Positions 7,047-25,618 of a DNA stretch of 64,000 nucleotides are shown here, in pieces. The notes beneath the pieces are model-generated. The model was given only the letters and a program-made list of their open reading frames with translations. It was not told the origin of the DNA and searched no databases. Within the stretch, counting starts at the first letter, position 1. Every line of letters starts with the position of its first letter. This DNA is from Staphylococcus schleiferi (GTDB taxonomy: Bacteria > Bacillota > Bacilli > Staphylococcales > Staphylococcaceae): positions 1,550,001-1,614,000 of the forward strand of contig NZ_LR962863.1 of the NCBI RefSeq assembly GCF_900458895.1, written 5' to 3'. A program made the translations under genes and the position numbers.

Positions 7047-7129
7047 ATTTTAATTTTTGATATCAAAAAAGCACAAATATCTCTATAATTGTAAGTGCCT
7101 AAACAAACCATTAAGGAGATATTGTGCCT

Positions 7130-7762: not shown

Positions 7763-8773
7763 TTATTTATTAAACTTCAAATCATACATTTTTATATATT
7801 TCGCTACAGCAATCGGTAGATTGTCATAATGGATATCCAATACAAAATCTTGTTTTGCATGTTTAAGGTATTTTACGACAACATAGATATCTATTGGTTC
7901 GAAGACAATGATATCAGCTAAATTATAATTTGAAATCTTCGGTGTTAATTCAATGACCTCTTGATATAATTTAATAATTTTTTCTAAGCTACGTTTAATC
8001 TCAAGTTTTTCAAAATTAAGTGGCGCATCCCATACTAAATGATTAATAAAATCTACTGTCAATAATTGCTTTTCATTTCTAATATAATTCATATGCGCTA
8101 AATCATGAGCTATAAAATGTTTCGATCCTGTTAATACAATTATTGGAACCCCTAAGTCTTCTAAAATATTCCTAAATCGAATTTGTTCTTTCGGACTTAA
8201 ATTAGATTCGGGATAGCAATAAATCAATAATGCTTTATTATTAGATTGATAACTTAACTCTTCAACAATTAAAGGTATGAGTGACTCTAATCTTACAATT
8301 AAGCGACTATATTCGTGATCTAAATCATACGCAAACTCTATATTTTTAATAAAGGATTTTGTATCAAATCTCTTTGTTTTTAAAGGTAAATCATTTTTAA
8401 CAAGGTTTAACAAATCTTCTAATAAAACATTAATAGAGTTTAAATAGCTGTCTAATTCGTATTGTTCTGACAAAAGTCGATTGAGCTTTTTAGTTATTAT
8501 TGCGTTAGCAGCCAAAGTATGTTCCTTATCTATTGCTTCGTGACTTAACATGTAGCATTGATAAAGATTAGATGGCAATTGTTCTTGATTAATTCTGTCA
8601 TAAATGCTTGTTTCATCCTTATTTGAATGACGCTTTTGAAAATAGTCACATATGATATTTAATATATCTTCTTCCTTAGTCTCAAATTCATTATATATTG
8701 AAGTGTACATCCCAATGTTCATTTCAGTCTTTGGGATAAGCGTACTTTTTATCTCCCAAATCATATTGTTCAT
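7763..8773 (-). CDS. csn2: Csn2, long form (type II-A adaptation protein)
   Basis: 336 aa, the long Csn2 variant seen with small Cas9 proteins such as S. thermophilus CRISPR1, not the ~220-aa form of S. pyogenes. Csn2 forms a ring on double-stranded DNA ends and is required for spacer acquisition (family knowledge). Visible are the charged middle (about 90-170), the hydrophobic strand NKALLIYCYPESN near 205, and VPIIVLTGSKHF near 235. The reading frame is intact from an ATG 12 bases after cas2, and the leader and array follow. It has no intact Cas1 partner here. Confidence 0.88.
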   Translation of the reverse strand: MNNMIWEIKSTLIPKTEMNIGMYTSIYNEFETKEEDILNIICDYFQKRHSNKDETSIYDRINQEQLPSNLYQCYMLSHEAIDKEHTLAANAIITKKLNRLLSEQYELDSYLNSINVLLEDLLNLVKNDLPLKTKRFDTKSFIKNIEFAYDLDHEYSRLIVRLESLIPLIVEELSYQSNNKALLIYCYPESNLSPKEQIRFRNILEDLGVPIIVLTGSKHFIAHDLAHMNYIRNEKQLLTVDFINHLVWDAPLNFEKLEIKRSLEKIIKLYQEVIELTPKISNYNLADIIVFEPIDIYVVVKYLKHAKQDFVLDIHYDNLPIAVAKYIKMYDLKFNK

Positions 8774-8785
8774 TATAATTATCCT

Positions 8786-9109
8786 TTAAAATATTATTGT
8801 TCGATTATCACCGAGTAAAGCTATATTTTGATCTTCCTTACCTAACAAAATTTGCATTTTTTCATATTGTTTCTCGGTTATAATTAAAGATCTTACATGA
8901 CCGTCTTGAGGTAAGAATTGTTTTATTTGTAAAACTGAAAAATCTGCAGCATCTTTATTGGCAACACTTTTAATATAAATTGAATATTGCATCATCAAAA
9001 AACCATTTTCAAGTAACCTTTTTCTAAATTTACTATAAATTCGCCTCTGTTTTTTCGTCTCAACTGGTAAGTCAAACATAATCATTACTCTCATAAACCT
9101 ATAGCTCAT
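8786..9109 (-). CDS. cas2: Cas2 (type II-A)
   Basis: 107 aa. Cas2 dimers form the scaffold of the Cas1-Cas2 integrase. The sequence MSYRFMRVMIMFDLPVET is the standard type II-A Cas2 start, with the conserved Asp after the first strand. It then continues KQRRIYSKFRKRLLENGF and closes with GDNRTIIF. I chose the ATG at 9109 because it gives this conserved N-terminus; it overlaps the cas1 stop by 11 bases. The gene is intact, but the upstream cas1 is split and transcription from cas9 probably stops inside the inserted element. Confidence 0.9.
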   Translation of the reverse strand: MSYRFMRVMIMFDLPVETKKQRRIYSKFRKRLLENGFLMMQYSIYIKSVANKDAADFSVLQIKQFLPQDGHVRSLIITEKQYEKMQILLGKEDQNIALLGDNRTIIF

Positions 9110-9735
9110 AGAAAGTAAATTGCTTAATATCTGGAAATTTAAGCAATTGTTTTTGACCTTCTCTAAAATAATCAATGATAGACTGAATCATGATTTCAAT
9201 AGCGCGTATAACTGTTTGCATCTTACCGTCTATAAGCACCCTCGCATGTAACAAATTCACAAGCTTTAATCTATATGCTTTTGTCAAAAAATCTTCTGGC
9301 GGATGTTTGAGTAAAAATAAATCTACTAAAGGTCTAAAGGGTTCAATAAAGTCTGATGCGAGATTAAAATGATTTCTACCACCTATATGGTGAATACCTA
9401 ACGCGGGAATGAGCCCTTTTGCTACGATAGTTCTTGCAATAGCTGCATTCAGAATCGTGTATCCATAATTAAGAACTGCATTCTCTAATGAATTGTCATC
9501 ATCACGTTTAAAATCTTCAAAAAAGCTATTAAAATAATATTTTGCAGCTTGTCCTTCAATATTGTGTTCATCTTTTAATTGAACGACATCTCTCAATTCT
9601 TGCATTTTACGAATCCTAGCCTCATTTCCTACGATTAGTCAAGTCTTTATGTTTAAAATAAGCATTACTAAATTAGCCCGTTCAATTTAATTTTTTTGAA
9701 TAAGGTGTTATGATGTATATGATTATATGGTTACA

Positions 9736-10935
9736 TTAGTGTGGTGCTTTTTGATAATCATATAATTGATTGTTAGTAATAAGATAATGAATGGTTTTTA
9801 ACAAACGATTCACACTAGCTATGACTGCAGTCTTATGAGGTTTCTCATTTGGCTGCTTTCTTAATTTGTAGTAATAGTCTGCAACATGATTTTTATAACG
9901 ATTTCGTCCTCTAATGATATTCATGATGATTAGAAACAATAAACGTCTAGCTTTCTTATTACCTCTTTTATTAATTGTATCTCTGCTCATAGAATTACCT
10001 GATTGATAACGTTTTATATCAATTCCGACATACGCATTGAGTTGTTTGTTTGTTTCAAAATGTGTTATATCTCCAAGCTCTCCAATCAGTAAAGCAGTGG
10101 TTAATTCTCCTAACCCAGGAATAGAAACTATATTTTCAAACGCATCAGTTGTCTTAGCTAATTTAATCATCTCTTTATCAAACAAATCTTTTTCATGCAT
10201 AGATTTAAGTAATTTATCACATAGATGTCTTAATTTCTCTACGAGAAATGAAGATTGTTTAACTGTAGGGAAGCTATTTTGTGCTATTGAAATCAAATCA
10301 TTCGTATACTTTTGAGCTTTTTTAATGGACATGCCTTTAGCTGTTGAATTAAGTATGGTATGAGTTAATTCGTCATGTGTTAATGCGAAAACACAATTGG
10401 GATGAGGAAATACTTTAGCTATATTTAAAGCAATCTTAGAGTACCTATTTTTAAATAACTTTTCTAAGCCTGGAAATGTTTGATGAAGCACTTCAACTAA
10501 TTCTACCTTTAGTTTATTTTGATCATTTTCCATTTCTAAATGAAATCTTGCACGTTCTCTAAGCTCAAAATATATTTCTTCAGTATGACGTTGAATTTTA
10601 GCGTCCTTCATATTGAATGCCAAAAGCGCAAGTTTATGTGCATCAGCTTGATCGGTTTTCCATGATCTTAAAGAACTTGTTCTGAATTTAGCTTCTAACG
10701 GGTTCATCTCAATATAATTAATTTGATTTACGCGACAAAATCGAGTCATACCTCTTGAATAAATACCAGTAGATTCAAAAATGATTTGTAGGTGGTCTAA
10801 ATCATTCAAATACTTTAATAAATAATTATAACCATTTTTATTATTTTGAATGGTAAATTCTCTTTGAAATTGATCGTTATGATAATGAGCTACGACACTA
10901 CTTCTTTTACTAATATCAACACCTAAGTAATTGAT
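9736..10935 (-). CDS. IS110-family transposase (DEDD recombinase)
   Basis: The N-terminal RuvC-like domain begins NYLGVDISKRSSVVAHYH, with the first Asp of DEDD. It continues with FESTGIYSRGMTRFCR and SSLRSWKTDQADAHKLA. The C-terminal Transposase_20 part has SIPGLGELTTALLIGELGD and KRGNKKARRLLF, which includes the region of the catalytic Ser. The first ATG-type codon falls 42 codons too late and would delete the first Asp. The frame is open upstream to an ATC at 10935 placed eight bases after AAGGAGG, so I take ATC as start, giving 399 aa. The gene is otherwise intact. Confidence 0.85.
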   Translation of the reverse strand: MNYLGVDISKRSSVVAHYHNDQFQREFTIQNNKNGYNYLLKYLNDLDHLQIIFESTGIYSRGMTRFCRVNQINYIEMNPLEAKFRTSSLRSWKTDQADAHKLALLAFNMKDAKIQRHTEEIYFELRERARFHLEMENDQNKLKVELVEVLHQTFPGLEKLFKNRYSKIALNIAKVFPHPNCVFALTHDELTHTILNSTAKGMSIKKAQKYTNDLISIAQNSFPTVKQSSFLVEKLRHLCDKLLKSMHEKDLFDKEMIKLAKTTDAFENIVSIPGLGELTTALLIGELGDITHFETNKQLNAYVGIDIKRYQSGNSMSRDTINKRGNKKARRLLFLIIMNIIRGRNRYKNHVADYYYKLRKQPNEKPHKTAVIASVNRLLKTIHYLITNNQLYDYQKAPH

Positions 10936-10944
10936 AAATATAGC

Positions 10945-11174
10945 CTCCTTTAAAGAATTGAGAAGCTTTGAACTTTACTTAGCCTTTTTCATCTCATTTT
11001 CCTATACACGGTTTCAAGAACCCAACATACTTCAAACGAATTTCAAAAGGAGAGTAAAGCTGATCAGTTTAAATTGCGGATTCAAAGATCCAAGAGTCTA
11101 CTCGATCTACTTCTCTCTACAACTATAAAAAATAGCTGTGAAGAAATCTATCGTCATAAATTTCTTCACAGCTA
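10945..11174 (-). ncRNA. Candidate bridge RNA region of the IS110 element
   Basis: IS110 elements make a structured non-coding 'bridge' RNA from the end 5' of the transposase (established for IS621). Here that end is about 250 bases and holds a perfect 14-bp stem-loop (11133-11174) at its outer side. Further in are small hairpins, ggatctttgaatcc and ggttcttgaaacc. An 8-base stretch (agtatgtt on the minus strand, 11031-11024) is complementary to the element's own left terminus at 11180-11187. The exact ends and fold are not determined; this is inference from position and structure. Confidence 0.45.
11123..11174 (-). terminator. Stem-loop at the IS110 left end, terminator-like
   Basis: On the minus strand tagctgtgaagaaa pairs perfectly with tttcttcacagcta around a 14-base loop and is followed by TTTTTTATAG. 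As an intrinsic terminator it would stop read-through from cas9-cas1. As the first stem of a bridge RNA it would be the 5' stem-loop. Both roles are possible. Confidence 0.7.
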
Positions 11175-11561
11175 ATCTTAGTATGTTTATATTATTATGT
11201 TCCATGCACCTAATTTGATTCAATATTTTTTGCTTCAATATTTGTTTCCATAGTTCTTTTTTACTTAATTCATCCCATGACAATTGCGCTTTCATTTGTG
11301 CATACTGACTAAAATGACCAGAAATAGGTTGCAATACACATTCTGGCAAATGTTTTTGGTTACAAAAAATTACTAAAATATTATAATCAGATAATTCAAC
11401 TAATAATCTAGCTGTTACCGTAACAGTCAAATCTTCAATAACAACCGCAAAAATATCACTCAAAGGTACTTTAATCTCCCGATCTCCCTTAGCAATTTTC
11501 AAACTACTCAATGACAAAGATAACTTAGTGACATCACTTGCATAGACGATGCGCCAAGACA

Positions 11562-14500
11562 TTATAGGACACCTCTTTTAAAGATAAGTTGAGGACTTTT
11601 TGAAGGTTTAACTTTAAATTGATTACCTAAAACGTCAGTTGAATATTTTTCAATCTTTTCAGTTTTTTTACCTATTGTTTTAAAAATTCGTGGTGTTTTT
11701 TTAATTTCCATTAAGTCACAATAGTATTTATAATTAATATCAATCATATTTAATTCCACCACATTTCTTGTAGAATTATTCACTCCAATTACTCTAAATA
11801 GTTCATCATCAATAGAAATCAAGTCATTATAATAAAAACTACCAATAAATTGAGCATCACTAGGTACTTTATATCTTTCTTTCAATGCTTGATATTCATT
11901 TTTTAATATTTGATAATGCTTCTCTTTTTTCTTTATATCCATGTAAGTTAAAGTAATCATATGATAGCCTGCTTTTGAGTGAAAAACATCGAAGCGAAAA
12001 GGCTTAATGGAGAGCTGTACAACCTTTCTTTCTGCACCCGGAAAATTTTTGCTTATATCTAGATGAGTCCCTACTTTTTTCCCAATATACTTTAATTTTT
12101 TGATAGTGGGGCCTTTTTCATTTTTAGCATATTTAGTAAGGTATTCACCATTTTCTTCGTAATACTTGGCAAACGGATTTTTCTCTTCTCCATATTGTTT
12201 TATCACTAGCATTAATTTTTCAAAAGTTTGAGGATCATGTTTATACATAAGTAACTTCTCAGGCGTTTTTAAAAATAAATCTTTAATTTTAGTATTATCT
12301 TTGGCATATATATCTTTAACGGTTTGAACAATATAATGGTCTTCATTTACTTCCCGTGTAGAATATAGACTATCATTAATCAATTGTCTATTTGGCTTCT
12401 TATCTACTCGATGTGAATATTTAAAGTCTTTATAATCTTTAATGTCTTGGACTTGCTTAGGAATTTCAAACATTTTGCGAAAGTCTTGTTCGGATAGTAA
12501 ATTCTTGGACTCTTTATTTCTATTTAGACTTAAATTATTATTTTCTAAGATAGCATTTGCTTCTTTAAGTTCTTTAGACTGTTTGAATAAATAACTTACA
12601 TTAGCAATAATTAACGCATCTTCTGCATGATGTTTAAATCCTTTATTTCGAGCTTTATCAAACTTCCAAGCTTTTCTCAAATAATTTGTAAAGCTTCCAT
12701 TAATAGTTTTAATTTTAACGTCTAAATCATTAGCACTAAAGTAAGATTTCAATAATTGCACTAACTCTCTTGTTGCATAGCGTGTATCCACCAAATTGCG
12801 ATTAATAAACTCTTTTTGAATTTCAAATTTATTAATGTCACGTTCTTCTAACAAATACTCTCTCTTTTTCTTGGATATTCTCTCCTTAGATTTACTTAGG
12901 TTGAGTATGTGTTGCTTAAATTGCGCATATGATAAAGCGCTTTCATTAGAGTTTAAGTACTGATATGGTGTACGGTTTCCTTTTTTACTATTTTCTTCTT
13001 GCTTTACCAGAACTTTATTATTAAAAGAGTTATCAAACGATACTGACCTCGGGATAATGTGATCGATTTCATAATGTGATGGATTTCTAAGTAAATCATC
13101 TAATGGAATATTTTGTAGAGAATACAAGCATTTTCCTTCTTGCATGTGATGCAATTTAATTTTTTCAACTAAACCTTTTGCATTGTGATTTCCGTATTCT
13201 CGAATCGCTTCCTCTACTTGTTTTCTTGTATTCTCATTTTCTTTTTGTATACGGTTTAAAAACTTTCTTCGATCTTCACTATTTTTCTCTCGAGCTAATT
13301 CAATAACAATCTCTTCTGGCAGTCCGTACTTTTTTATTACGGTATTTACAATTTCAATTGATTGAATAAAAGAACGTTTTACGACAGGTGACAAAATGAA
13401 CTCTTCAACCATGTTTTTAGGAATTTGCTTCTGTTTAGAAAGCTGAAACTTTTGAGGTTTAAGATTAAGAGCAGTAAATACCTCCATTTGGTTTCGAGAT
13501 GTCTGCCACATCTCTTCGATTAATAGATGTAAACATTTTAACGATAAACGATGAGTCCCTGTATAACCATTCAAATGTGCAATTGCTTCTTTTTCAGACT
13601 CTGTTAATAAATCCTGTAGTTGATCCAAAGCTTCTTTAATACTTAATGGATCTTGATAAAGCGTTAAAATAAATGCAATTTCATCTAATAATTCAATATT
13701 TTCTAAGTTTTTTCTTATCCAAAAATATTTTATTTAAATCATGATACAACTTAAATGATGTAAATTGTGGTTTCCCGTTTTTGGTAATTCTATATCCTTT
13801 AATATCAGATTCTTCAACATTTATTTCTTTGGCAATTTGTTTTAATGTTGGTGATTTCTTTTGTTTGAAGACATTTTCAATAATATGATACTTTTCATAA
13901 TATTCTAACTTTTCATTTTCATCTCTTGCGATTACTAAATTATTCAAATCATTTAATGCATTAAATAAATCTGCTGAATATGCGTACTTAACACTTCTTA
14001 ATTCCTCTGGAAAGTAGGTACATCTTCCAATTAACTTTTCATACCATTGTTTCAAATCGCCATCCCAACCGTATTGACTTCCTTTACCTGGGCCCTCATA
14101 GTATTCTCTTCTCGTTTCTAATAAATGTATGTACTGTTCTATAAAATGATCATCAATGTCATGATAATTTTGTTGCGTAGTTAATATTTGTCTTGCTTCT
14201 TTTACAAAATCCTCCGTCTTAAATCTGTTACTTTCCCCTCTTACTTTATAATGTTCATTTAACCTATCTAATTGAAGTTCACAAACATATCGATTTTCTA
14301 ACTGCTTTGCATTTTCTTTTAATTGCTCTTTTGTCGATAGTTCATTAGTACTTTCATTTTCGTCCATCACAACATGTACATTATGTATTCCTCTTCTTTT
14401 AGCCAAATGTAATAGTGCAATGACAAGCTCACTTTTAGATAATGGTGATGATAATCCCTTAACCCTGATTAGATATGGGTTTGTACTCTTAGGAATTTTG

Positions 14501-14739
14501 TCGTCAATAATTAAATGGTATTGTGCTAATAAATTTTTAACTCGATCTAATCTATGAATTCTTCTTCGTTTTAAGCGTCTTGAACCCCTTTTAGCTCTTC
14601 TACCCTCGTTGTTTTCAACATTCGCTTCAGGAAACAATCTCACACCAGCATCTATTACTGATTTTGAATCACTATGAATTAAACCGTATCCAACTGATGC
14701 GATACCAACATCTAAACCGAGAATATAACTATTTTTCAA
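11562..14739 (-). pseudogene. cas9: Cas9 (S. aureus type), frameshifted by one base
   Basis: RNA-guided DNA endonuclease of type II-A. The 5' part reads from a TTG at 14739, eight bases after AGGGGGA. It encodes MKNSYILGLDVGIASVGYG with RuvC Asp10 and the bridge helix (RRAKRGSRRLKRRRIHRL). At 13708-13713 a run of six T (A on the coding strand) shifts the frame and gives a stop at 13693. With five bases the frame continues through LENIELLDEIAFILTLYQ to the stop at 11562, a 1058-aa protein against 1053 for SaCas9. The rest is complete: E480, HNH with H560 (YEIDHIIPRS), HHAEDALIIAN (H704, D707) and the PAM-interacting end. Confidence 0.95.
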
Positions 14740-24865: not shown

Positions 24866-25484
24866 TGGTGGGGTTCCTAAAGAACTACTCACAGATAATA
24901 TGAAAGAAGTGATGGATCAGCCCTGTACGAGATTCAGTAAAGGTCAAATCAATCGTCGATTCGAACAATTCGCGCATGATATGGGAACAAAAGTCCGACC
25001 ATGTATAGCAGGGAGACCTATGACAAAGGGTAAGGTTGAAGCTTCTATGAAACTACTTGATGAAATCCATGCCTATCAAGGCGAATTTAATTTGTCTGAG
25101 CTTCATGAATATATCTCAAAACTGAATCAAAGATTAAATTATCAGCTACACCAGGGTACGGGAAAAATACCGATTATTGAATTAGAAAAAGAAAAGAGCC
25201 ACTTACTCCCCTTCCAACGGAAAAAGTAAGAGACTCCTATAGAATCATTGGACAACATGTAAAAGTTAACGCTTCTAATATGATTACGTTTCAAGAAAAT
25301 CAATATTCAGTACCATCTGAATATGCCGGAAAGCGCGTGCAATTACAAGTGTTCAACCATGAACTACATGTATATTATAACAAGAAGCTGATAGCGTGCC
25401 ACTCTATAAGTAACGCCAAGTTGAATTATAAAGAAGAACATTATATTGAAGCGTTGCAATTATCATCCCCATATTATCCAGTCG
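24866..25484 (+). pseudogene. istA: IS21-family IstA transposase fragment
   Basis: GGVPKELLTDNMKEVMDQP, then VRPCIAGRPMTKGKVEASMK and LLDEIHAYQGEFNLSELHEY, is the DDE core of IstA. A stop at 25229 is followed in another frame by VRDSYRIIGQHVKVNASNMI and YSVPSEYAGKRVQLQVF through LNYKEEHYIEALQLSSPYY, the C-terminal part. The N-terminal half is missing and a frameshift lies near 25227. The fragment is fused to IS3 orfB on the left and a group II intron end on the right. Confidence 0.88.
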
Positions 25485-25618
25485 TCAGTGCGAGTGTTTA
25501 CGTCCGACTTCCTTCAGATTCCACTTCACAATGGACACCCTTGTCTTTCGCTAACAGTTCCTACTACCAAGCCTGTAACGGACTTTCACCGTCAAGATGT
25601 TACCCATGCCGGGCGCAC
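25485..25618 (-). mobile_element. Group II intron 5' end fragment (domain I)
   Basis: On the minus strand the sequence opens GTGCGCCCGGCATGGGTAAC, the GUGYG 5' splice end of bacterial group II introns. It continues with ggtgaaagtcc and gcgaaagacaagggtgtcc, then gaatctgaaggaagtcggac, all typical of domain I. The homology stops near 25485 where istA sequence begins. No reverse transcriptase or domains V/VI remain. Only the conserved primary sequence identifies it; I could not fold it. Confidence 0.8.

What the first reader, a model, noticed from the sequence alone, without database searches (positions are those of the whole stretch)
9628..11187. Joined IS110 ends would create a promoter upstream of a structured RNA
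On the minus strand the right end finishes TTGACT-aatcgtagg and the left end begins catac-TAAGAT. Joined in a circle through the shared AA they give TTGACT-N16-TAAGAT. Transcription would then start at the 14-bp stem-loop (11174-11133). In IS621, circle formation builds such a promoter for the bridge RNA. Here each half is silent in the chromosome, so RNA would be made only from the excised circle.
Basis: partly seen in the sequence, partly recalled or inferred. Interest (0 to 1): 0.72.

Follow-up and report, generated by a model that had tools for sequence, protein, structure and literature searches.

The report
IS110 element with circle-only promoter
A small jumping gene of staphylococci, here sitting inside a CRISPR gene, carries half a promoter at each end, so that it should switch on its guide RNA mainly when it has cut itself out as a circle; the trick is known in this family, but the guide RNA is built in an unusual order and should begin inside what looks like a transcription stop signal.

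Summary
The element is a 1.56-kb IS110-family insertion sequence (minus strand, 11188-9625; transposase 399 aa, 69% identical to ISSep2), with 5 near-identical copies in its genome and relatives across Staphylococcus. Its ends are fixed by the unoccupied cas1 frame of relatives and by aligned copies. Joined at the shared AAA they give TTGACT-17-TAAGAT (not 16); 31 of 31 full-length copies scored, from 11 genomes, have this 17-bp spacing. The left end encodes a predicted bridge RNA with a target loop whose 9-nt guide covaries with the target (0 of 2000 permutations) and a nearly invariant donor loop. So promoter assembly on circularisation is well supported, but it is already known for IS621, ISEc21 and ISEc11.

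Less usual: both loops read right guide, hairpin, left guide, the reverse of IS621 and ISEc21 and the order reported for IS1111, although the RNA lies upstream of the transposase; and the 5' hairpin (19 bp plus U6) looks like a terminator for read-in transcription, while the junction promoter should start inside its 5' arm and so escape it. The terminator reading is inferred; no RNA data exist here. 'Silent in the chromosome' is not strict: this copy's right half meets a -10-like TAGGAT in cas1.

The parts
9625..11188 (-). whole IS110-type element, both AAA cores included (1564 bp)
   Evidence: copies; unoccupied Cas1 frame in relatives
11186..11188 (-). left core AAA (shared with right end)
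9625..9627 (-). right core AAA
9637..9642 (-). -35 half TTGACT in the right end
11175..11180 (-). -10 half TAAGAT in the left end
11172..11181 (-). left subterminal inverted repeat CTAAGATTAG, 7 nt from the element end; overlaps the -10
   Evidence: sequence
9629..9638 (-). right subterminal inverted repeat CTAATCGTAG (9 of 10 match as inverted repeat)
   Evidence: sequence
11133..11174 (-). 19-bp stem-loop, 5' stem-loop of the RNA and terminator-like hairpin
11127..11132 (-). U6 run after the hairpin
11119..11126 (-). ATAGTTGT, can pair with the hairpin's 3' arm (11139-11132) when the 5' arm is missing
10983..11169 (-). predicted bridge RNA body as made from the circle (start and end inferred)
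11051..11118 (-). target-binding loop with its closing stem
11092..11100 (-). right target guide TAGACTCTT, 5' side of target loop
11068..11075 (-). left target guide AATTTAAA, 3' side of target loop (weak support)
10983..11050 (-). donor-binding loop with its closing stem
11024..11031 (-). right donor guide AGTATGTT, complement of the left-end AACATACT
10998..11006 (-). left donor guide TATAGGAAA, same sense as right end TAGGAAA
9736..10935 (-). IS110 transposase/recombinase, 399 aa, apparently read from an ATC start codon after AAAGGAGG
11189..11562 (-). 5' part of the interrupted cas1
9099..9624 (-). 3' part of cas1; right target flank begins here (core AAA, then TGAGGCTAGG)

Best explanation
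This is an IS110-family insertion sequence of the ISSep2 kind that moves as an RNA-guided circle. On excision the right-end TTGAC(T/A) and left-end TAAGAT are joined 17 bp apart into a sigma-A promoter (shown by sequence in the scored copies; activity inferred). It should start transcription about LE nt 20-22 and make a bridge RNA of about 190 nt followed by the transposase message. The RNA has a target loop (right target guide, small hairpin, left target guide) and a donor loop (right donor guide, small hairpin, left donor guide) that pair with a target, usually an intergenic repeat with (A)AGRGNCTGGGAC, and with the element's own joined ends (covariation shown for the right target guide; donor pairing shown as conserved complementarity). 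In the integrated state the promoter is split, and transcripts entering from the left flank would make the full 19-bp hairpin plus U6 and stop; a circle-initiated transcript lacks 5-7 nt at the base of the 5' arm, so the stem no longer reaches the U-run and transcription should continue (inferred).
For: Ends and target. Promoter: 31 of 31 copies with 17-bp spacing; TTGAC in 38 of 40 distinct right ends counted without requiring it, while the base before it varies; upstream sequence diverges (whose filter required TTGAC). Right target guide: score 5.72 against 4.66 +/- 0.25 when genomes are swapped, 0 of 2000, 14 genomes; in a scan of 306 column/sense tests the five best were columns 129-133, the guide. 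Bridge RNA helices: 99.0% of cells paired, 7 pairs with double changes. Hairpin: 98.0% paired, 6 pairs with double changes; listed independently as terminator-like. Mean hairpin energy falls from -24.4 to -15.4 or -12.1 kcal/mol if the RNA starts at nt 20 or 22. ISSep2 itself has the same ends, hairpin and guide layout. Lactiplantibacillus relative (35% identity): same guide order and 17-bp spacing read by eye, 18-bp hairpin.
Against: No RNA or circle was observed. TAAGAT is only 4 of 6 of a -10 (TAAGCT, 3 of 6, in Lactiplantibacillus), and it lies in the subterminal repeat, so its conservation has another sufficient cause. The left target guide is weakly supported (89 of 2000 permutations). 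The refolded helix is predicted above 0.9 in 9 of 18 sequences (a tenth at 0.90) for start 22 and in none of 18 for start 20; the number of its pairs with double changes is reached by 71 of 500 shuffles; and it lies downstream of the U-run, so it cannot itself prevent termination. The insertion point sits about 0-3 nt from where the guide alone would put it. Some targets pair poorly (G013 and two of five in G030; G078, where the guide of one copy was set against the target of another). The scan has a sixth peak at column 268 (z 3.5, 0 of 300) that I cannot explain. This copy's right half is not silent by sequence.
Confidence: 0.68

Rival explanations
1. The hexamers are conserved only because the ends are needed for recombination (subterminal repeat and donor-guide pairing); the promoter-like match is a by-product and the RNA is made from elsewhere.
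For: TAAGAT lies inside the repeat CTAAGATTAG, and AACATACT and TAGGAAA are donor-guide matches. Promoter-like pairs of 9/12 are common in this AT-rich DNA.
Against: TTGA lies outside the repeat and outside the donor-guide match, yet TTGAC is kept in 38 of 40 right ends while its upstream neighbour varies. In G022 and G068 the repeat is broken by T to A, and the change makes the -35 a perfect TTGACA. Between the left end and the transposase start the consensus scan listed on this strand only one pair, directly at the gene start.
Confidence: 0.15
2. The 5' hairpin with U6 ends the circle transcript as well, so the junction promoter makes a short RNA and the bridge RNA comes from read-through or from host promoters.
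For: The hairpin is a strong predicted terminator.
Against: The expected start lies 5-7 nt inside the 5' arm, which separates the remaining stem from the U-run by 5-7 nt. The guide loops, which lie downstream, are conserved with covariation.
Confidence: 0.15
3. The 5' hairpin is only the 5' stem-loop of a bridge RNA, as in IS621, and the U6 run has no terminator role.
For: IS621 bridge RNA also begins with a 5' stem-loop (PMC11208160, section 6). ISEc21 has a hairpin after its -10 without a T-run behind it (by eye).
Against: Five or more T directly follow the hairpin in 17 of 18 aligned sequences; G073 is aligned as TTTTAT. Solo copies of the hairpin lie behind the stops of co-directional reading frames in 11 of 18 rows, against 7 of 31 full elements with a co-directional frame, as if kept as terminators.
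Confidence: 0.3

Closest known systems
ISSep2 (IS110-like, Staphylococcus epidermidis)
   Same: Transposase 69% identical. The ISSep2 copy L159 has the same ends (TTGACTAATCGTAGGA; AACATACTAAGAT), hairpin with T6 and guide layout, and is also annotated from an ATC start. A G026 copy (L136) is 99% identical to it.
   Different: About 75% DNA identity over the element; right target guide CAGACTCTT instead of TAGACTCTT.
IS621 bridge recombinase (PMC11208160, PMC11208158)
   Same: RNA in the left end, promoter made by the joined ends, 5' stem-loop, target loop then donor loop, each with two guides flanking a small hairpin.
   Different: IS621 loops read stem, left guide, stem-loop, right guide (PMC11208158, passages); here right guide first in both loops. 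Transposase 399 instead of 328 aa; 9/10 subterminal repeat instead of 2-3 bp; core AA(A) instead of CT.
ISEc21 (IS110, PMC11187229; read here as L164)
   Same: Upstream RNA; junction promoter, read here as TTGACT-17-AATAAT (by eye).
   Different: Bottom-strand match precedes top-strand match; here the reverse. No T-run after its hairpin.
IS1111 group (ISEc11 and others, PMC11187229)
   Same: Top-strand match 5' of bottom-strand match; subterminal inverted repeats; junction promoter.
   Different: IS1111 RNA is nearly always downstream of the gene and transposases are 330-350 aa; here upstream and 399 aa. The tree does not place this clade with either group.
Lactiplantibacillus plantarum IS110 (L156, L160)
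   Same: 35% identical transposase; by eye 17-bp junction spacing and right-guide-first order; hairpin and refoldable 3' arm.
   Different: -10 weaker (TAAGCT), ATG start, shorter T-run, different target.

Membership tests
IS110 family | DEDD domain PF01548 and C-terminal PF02371 | tested here: met
   E 1.8e-20 and 2.3e-20, above cut-offs; NF033542 transpos_IS110 182 bits, cut-off 140
IS110 family | excision as a circle with precise junction | not testable with these tools
   only the unoccupied cas1 frame and the copy ends were read
IS110 group (against IS1111) | longer noncoding end upstream of tnp | tested here: met
   left end 253 nt, right end 111 nt, counted to the ATC start and from the stop codon
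IS110 group (against IS1111) | bottom-strand match 5' of top-strand match in the guide RNA | tested here: not met
   right target guide, a top-strand match, is on the 5' side; ISEc21 read with the same convention gave the published order by eye
IS1111 group | subterminal inverted repeats of 7-17 bp (range from PMC11208160) | tested here: met
   CTAAGATTAG / CTACGATTAG, 9 of 10 (by eye, no chance control); in L. plantarum only CTA-G is kept
IS1111 group | transposase related over full length to IS1111, 330-350 aa | tested here: not met
   399 aa; 24% over 164 aa to IS5075
IS1111 group | noncoding RNA region downstream of tnp | tested here: not met
   RNA region is upstream
bridge RNA (IS621 type) | two internal loops with guides to target and donor | tested here: met
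   left target guide inconclusive
bridge RNA (IS621 type) | left guide precedes right guide in each loop | tested here: not met
bridge RNA (IS621 type) | RNA expressed from the junction and bound by the recombinase | not testable with these tools
   no expression or binding data

The most novel reading that the evidence does not exclude
The element uses a start-site-gated terminator: the same DNA stops transcription that enters from the host but not transcription that starts at the circle junction, because the start lies inside the 5' arm of the terminator, and the freed 3' arm then refolds with a downstream copy of that arm. Together with an upstream bridge RNA that keeps the IS1111 guide order and repeats, this marks a Bacillota clade intermediate between the IS110 and IS1111 plans, and solo copies of the gated hairpin have been kept as gene terminators.
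Probability: 0.4. Interest if true: 0.72.

Novelty: new variant of a known kind. Interest (0 to 1): 0.5.

Why it matters
It gives a clear, testable layout for how a bridge-RNA element stays quiet in the chromosome and turns on as a circle, in a genus outside the enterobacterial models. Reversed guide order with an upstream RNA bears on how the IS110 and IS1111 plans are related, which PMC11208160 (section 12) ascribes to the RNA having moved between the ends. Matches to this element, many of them partial, occur in 61 of 84 genomes of the genus and in 51 plasmid records, and a 399-aa, right-guide-first system would be a distinct starting point for programmable recombinases.

Tried and rejected
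Rejected: that the downstream helix is a classical antiterminator (its partner lies after the U-run, so it forms too late; energies mixed). Rejected as general: recurrent fusion of solo left ends to the target repeat (strict pattern found 2 places, both in one genome of 84; looser cases seen by eye in L061, L069, L074). Left open: assignment of the clade to IS110 or IS1111 (deep forks open, long branches).

Rows dropped or never scored: L148; G061 left out of alignment A1 because its copy looked internally deleted. In one search the one G078 target was set against the guide of another G078 copy; one search used the right pair, added two G000 targets (41 rows, 14 genomes) and lacked G061. In one search, 2 of 19 solo loci (L059, L075) were missed by the search expression, and L064 counted twice. 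One search required TTGAC, so its conservation there is by construction; one search was made without that demand. Genome-swapping permutations and shuffles do not remove kinship.

Literature: searches. ISSep2 occurs in 8 papers of the library (listing only, none read); no description of its RNA or of a left-end terminator was seen in these listings. That a sigma-A start lies about 6-8 nt after the -10, and that terminators need the stem next to the U-run, is general knowledge, not from a call.

Full report
What was checked. The region carries an IS110-family element on the minus strand. Its protein matches PF01548 and PF02371 and NF033542. The genome holds five near-identical copies, and 61 of 84 genomes of the genus have some match, many of them partial. 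A record title and plasmid hits name the genus Staphylococcus; the closest named element is ISSep2, 69% identical in the protein.

True ends. Nineteen full copies share AAACATAC at the left and CGTAGGA at the right; beyond that the left flanks differ but are AT-rich, and the right flanks are mostly variants of a genus repeat, (A)AGRGNCTGGGACATAAAT. The window copy lies in cas1: the two cas1 pieces match TIGR03639, and intact Cas1 of relatives (L107, L108) has the same length at this place, by eye, if a single AAA is kept. So the shared core is an A-run (AAA here), and the circle would read TTGACT-AATCGTAGG-AAA-CATAC-TAAGAT, with a 17-bp spacer.

Promoter. In 31 of 31 scored copies from 11 genomes the spacer is 17 bp, with TTGACT or TTGACA and TAAGAT. 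Outside the element the left flank scores on average 2.5 of 6 for a -35 and the right flank 2.0 of 6 for a -10, spacing penalty included. TTGAC stands in 38 of 40 distinct right ends found without asking for it; the two others have TTGCC and TTAAC. In consensus terms it is an ordinary 9 of 12 match (10 of 12 where TTGACA), and such matches are common in this DNA. The window copy is an exception to 'silent halves': TTGACT-18-TAGGAT runs from the right end into cas1 and could read into the rest of cas1, cas2 and the following gene; L040 also has 4 of 6 at 16 bp.

The RNA. An alignment of 18 left ends from 17 genomes (A1; 19 were listed, G061 left out) gave a consensus fold with a long 5' hairpin and a stem around the target guide region. 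Tested as stated helices, the target-loop stem, its inner hairpin, the donor-loop stem and its inner hairpin have 99.0% of cells paired and 7 pairs with changes on both sides, against 2.9 in shuffles; shuffles do not remove relatedness. The donor loop is invariant at AGTATGTTGGG and nearly so at GTGTATAGGAAA: the first holds the complement of the left-end AACATACT, the second matches the right-end TAGGAAA.

Guides. The 9-nt stretch before GG in the target loop pairs with the right target of its own genome better than with those of other genomes: 5.72 against 4.66 +/- 0.25, 0 of 2000 permutations, 14 genomes. A scan of gap-free 7-column windows in both senses (306 tests that could vary, 300 permutations) puts the five best at columns 129-133, which is this guide; a sixth peak at column 268 (z 3.5) is unexplained. 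Permutation of genomes does not correct for kinship. Poor cases: G013, two of five targets in G030, and G078, where guide and target came from different copies. The other side of the loop is AT-rich and ends in AAAC like the left targets, but the test is weak: 89 of 2000.

Order of the guides. In both loops the right guide (pairs with the top strand) comes first. PMC11208160 (section 6) and PMC11208158 (passages) give left guide first for IS621; PMC11187229 (abstract and sections 6, 9, 12) gives bottom-strand match first for ISEc21 and top-strand match first for IS1111. As a check on my convention I read ISEc21 itself: AGCGA (left target sense) precedes CCCTGG (complement of the right target) in its left end, as published; this was by eye on the output, since the 7-mer search there found nothing. 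The window element thus has the IS1111 order in an IS110 position, with a 9 of 10 subterminal repeat. PMC11187229 mentions a few upstream-RNA exceptions among IS1111-type elements; I saw no guide order for them. The same order is seen in a Lactiplantibacillus element 35% identical in protein: AAGAAGTTT (complement of right target AAACTTCTT) before GTCCTTAAAA (left target CGCCCTTAAAA), read by eye. A tree of 11 proteins puts it with the two staphylococcal ones (98/96) but cannot say whether they belong to IS110 or IS1111.

The 5' hairpin. The hairpin 11174-11133 with T6 behind it is one of two terminator-like sites in the 1.9 kb, 0.4 expected. It has 98.0% of cells paired and 6 pairs with double changes over 18 sequences. 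The -10 ends at LE nt 14, so by the general rule transcription should begin near nt 20-22, inside the 5' arm (nt 15-33). Starting there removes 5-7 nt at the base of the stem, lowers its mean energy from -24.4 to -15.4 or -12.1 kcal/mol and leaves 5-7 nt between stem and T-run. I infer that host transcripts entering from the left stop here and circle transcripts pass. The freed 3' arm can pair with ATAGTTGT just downstream: 97.2% of cells paired, 8 cells with double changes against 2.1 in shuffles (0 of 500), in two pairs (a number 71 of 500 shuffles reach), and an analogous refolding is predicted for the Lactiplantibacillus RNA. But its predicted probability exceeds 0.9 in only 9 of 18 sequences for start 22 and in none for start 20, and it comes too late to prevent termination.

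Solo hairpins. Pieces of the left end without the gene occur widely. Of 18 rows from 17 loci, 11 have a reading frame running toward the hairpin that stops 6-39 nt before it, against 7 of 31 full elements with a frame running toward them; 6 of the 18 also or instead have a frame reading away (Fisher p 0.013, or 0.011 with a duplicate locus and a second row removed). This fits retention as gene terminators, but the loci were picked from the matches listed.

Verdict. The junction promoter itself is established for this family (PMC11208160; PMC11187229, which also cites the ISEc11 junction promoter paper, seen only as a reference). The new parts are the guide order in an upstream RNA and the proposed start-gated terminator; only the first rests on strong comparative evidence here.

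Noticed in passing
10935-10951 (minus strand): The transposase appears to start at ATC after AAAGGAGG; ATC or ATT stands at this place in 7 of 9 left ends shown (GTG in the two G078 copies), and the ISSep2 CDS in L159 is also annotated from ATC. The first ATG/GTG/TTG (10809) would drop the N-terminal GVDIS stretch.
   Followed up: partly
7763-14739: Type II CRISPR-Cas operon looks decayed: cas1 is interrupted by the element and the cas9-like sequence is split in two frames (13693-14739 and 11562-13628).
   Followed up: no
9642-9613 (minus strand): Outward hybrid promoter-like pair TTGACT-18-TAGGAT from the element into cas1, upstream of cas2.
   Followed up: partly
L059-L062, L064-L078: Solo left-end hairpins (about 60-100 bp) without transposase in many genomes, often just behind gene ends; L064 is a palindrome of the left end.
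   Followed up: partly
L062, L063 solo copy, L069, L074: Solo left ends fused directly to the target repeat CTGGGAC, as if the rest of the element had been lost up to the target.
   Followed up: partly
L041, L042, L046, L050, L051, L062: Insertion flanks carry Rfam staphylococcal sRNA families S35 or tsr24 (6 matches in 15 loci given); the target repeat may be part of, or next to, these transcribed repeats. Own genome has 25 sites like TNTGGGACATAAAT, 1 mismatch allowed, against 2 for the reversed control.
   Followed up: partly
right flanks: Distance between the core AA and the guide-matched GRGNCTG varies by about 0-3 nt or more between copies, so the guide register is loose.
   Followed up: no
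A1 column 268: A second, weaker complementarity signal to the right targets near the end of the left-end alignment; may be chance or kinship.
   Followed up: no
7065-7122 and 25466-25535 (minus strand): Rfam matches: sau-5949 sRNA and a piece of a group II intron.
   Followed up: no
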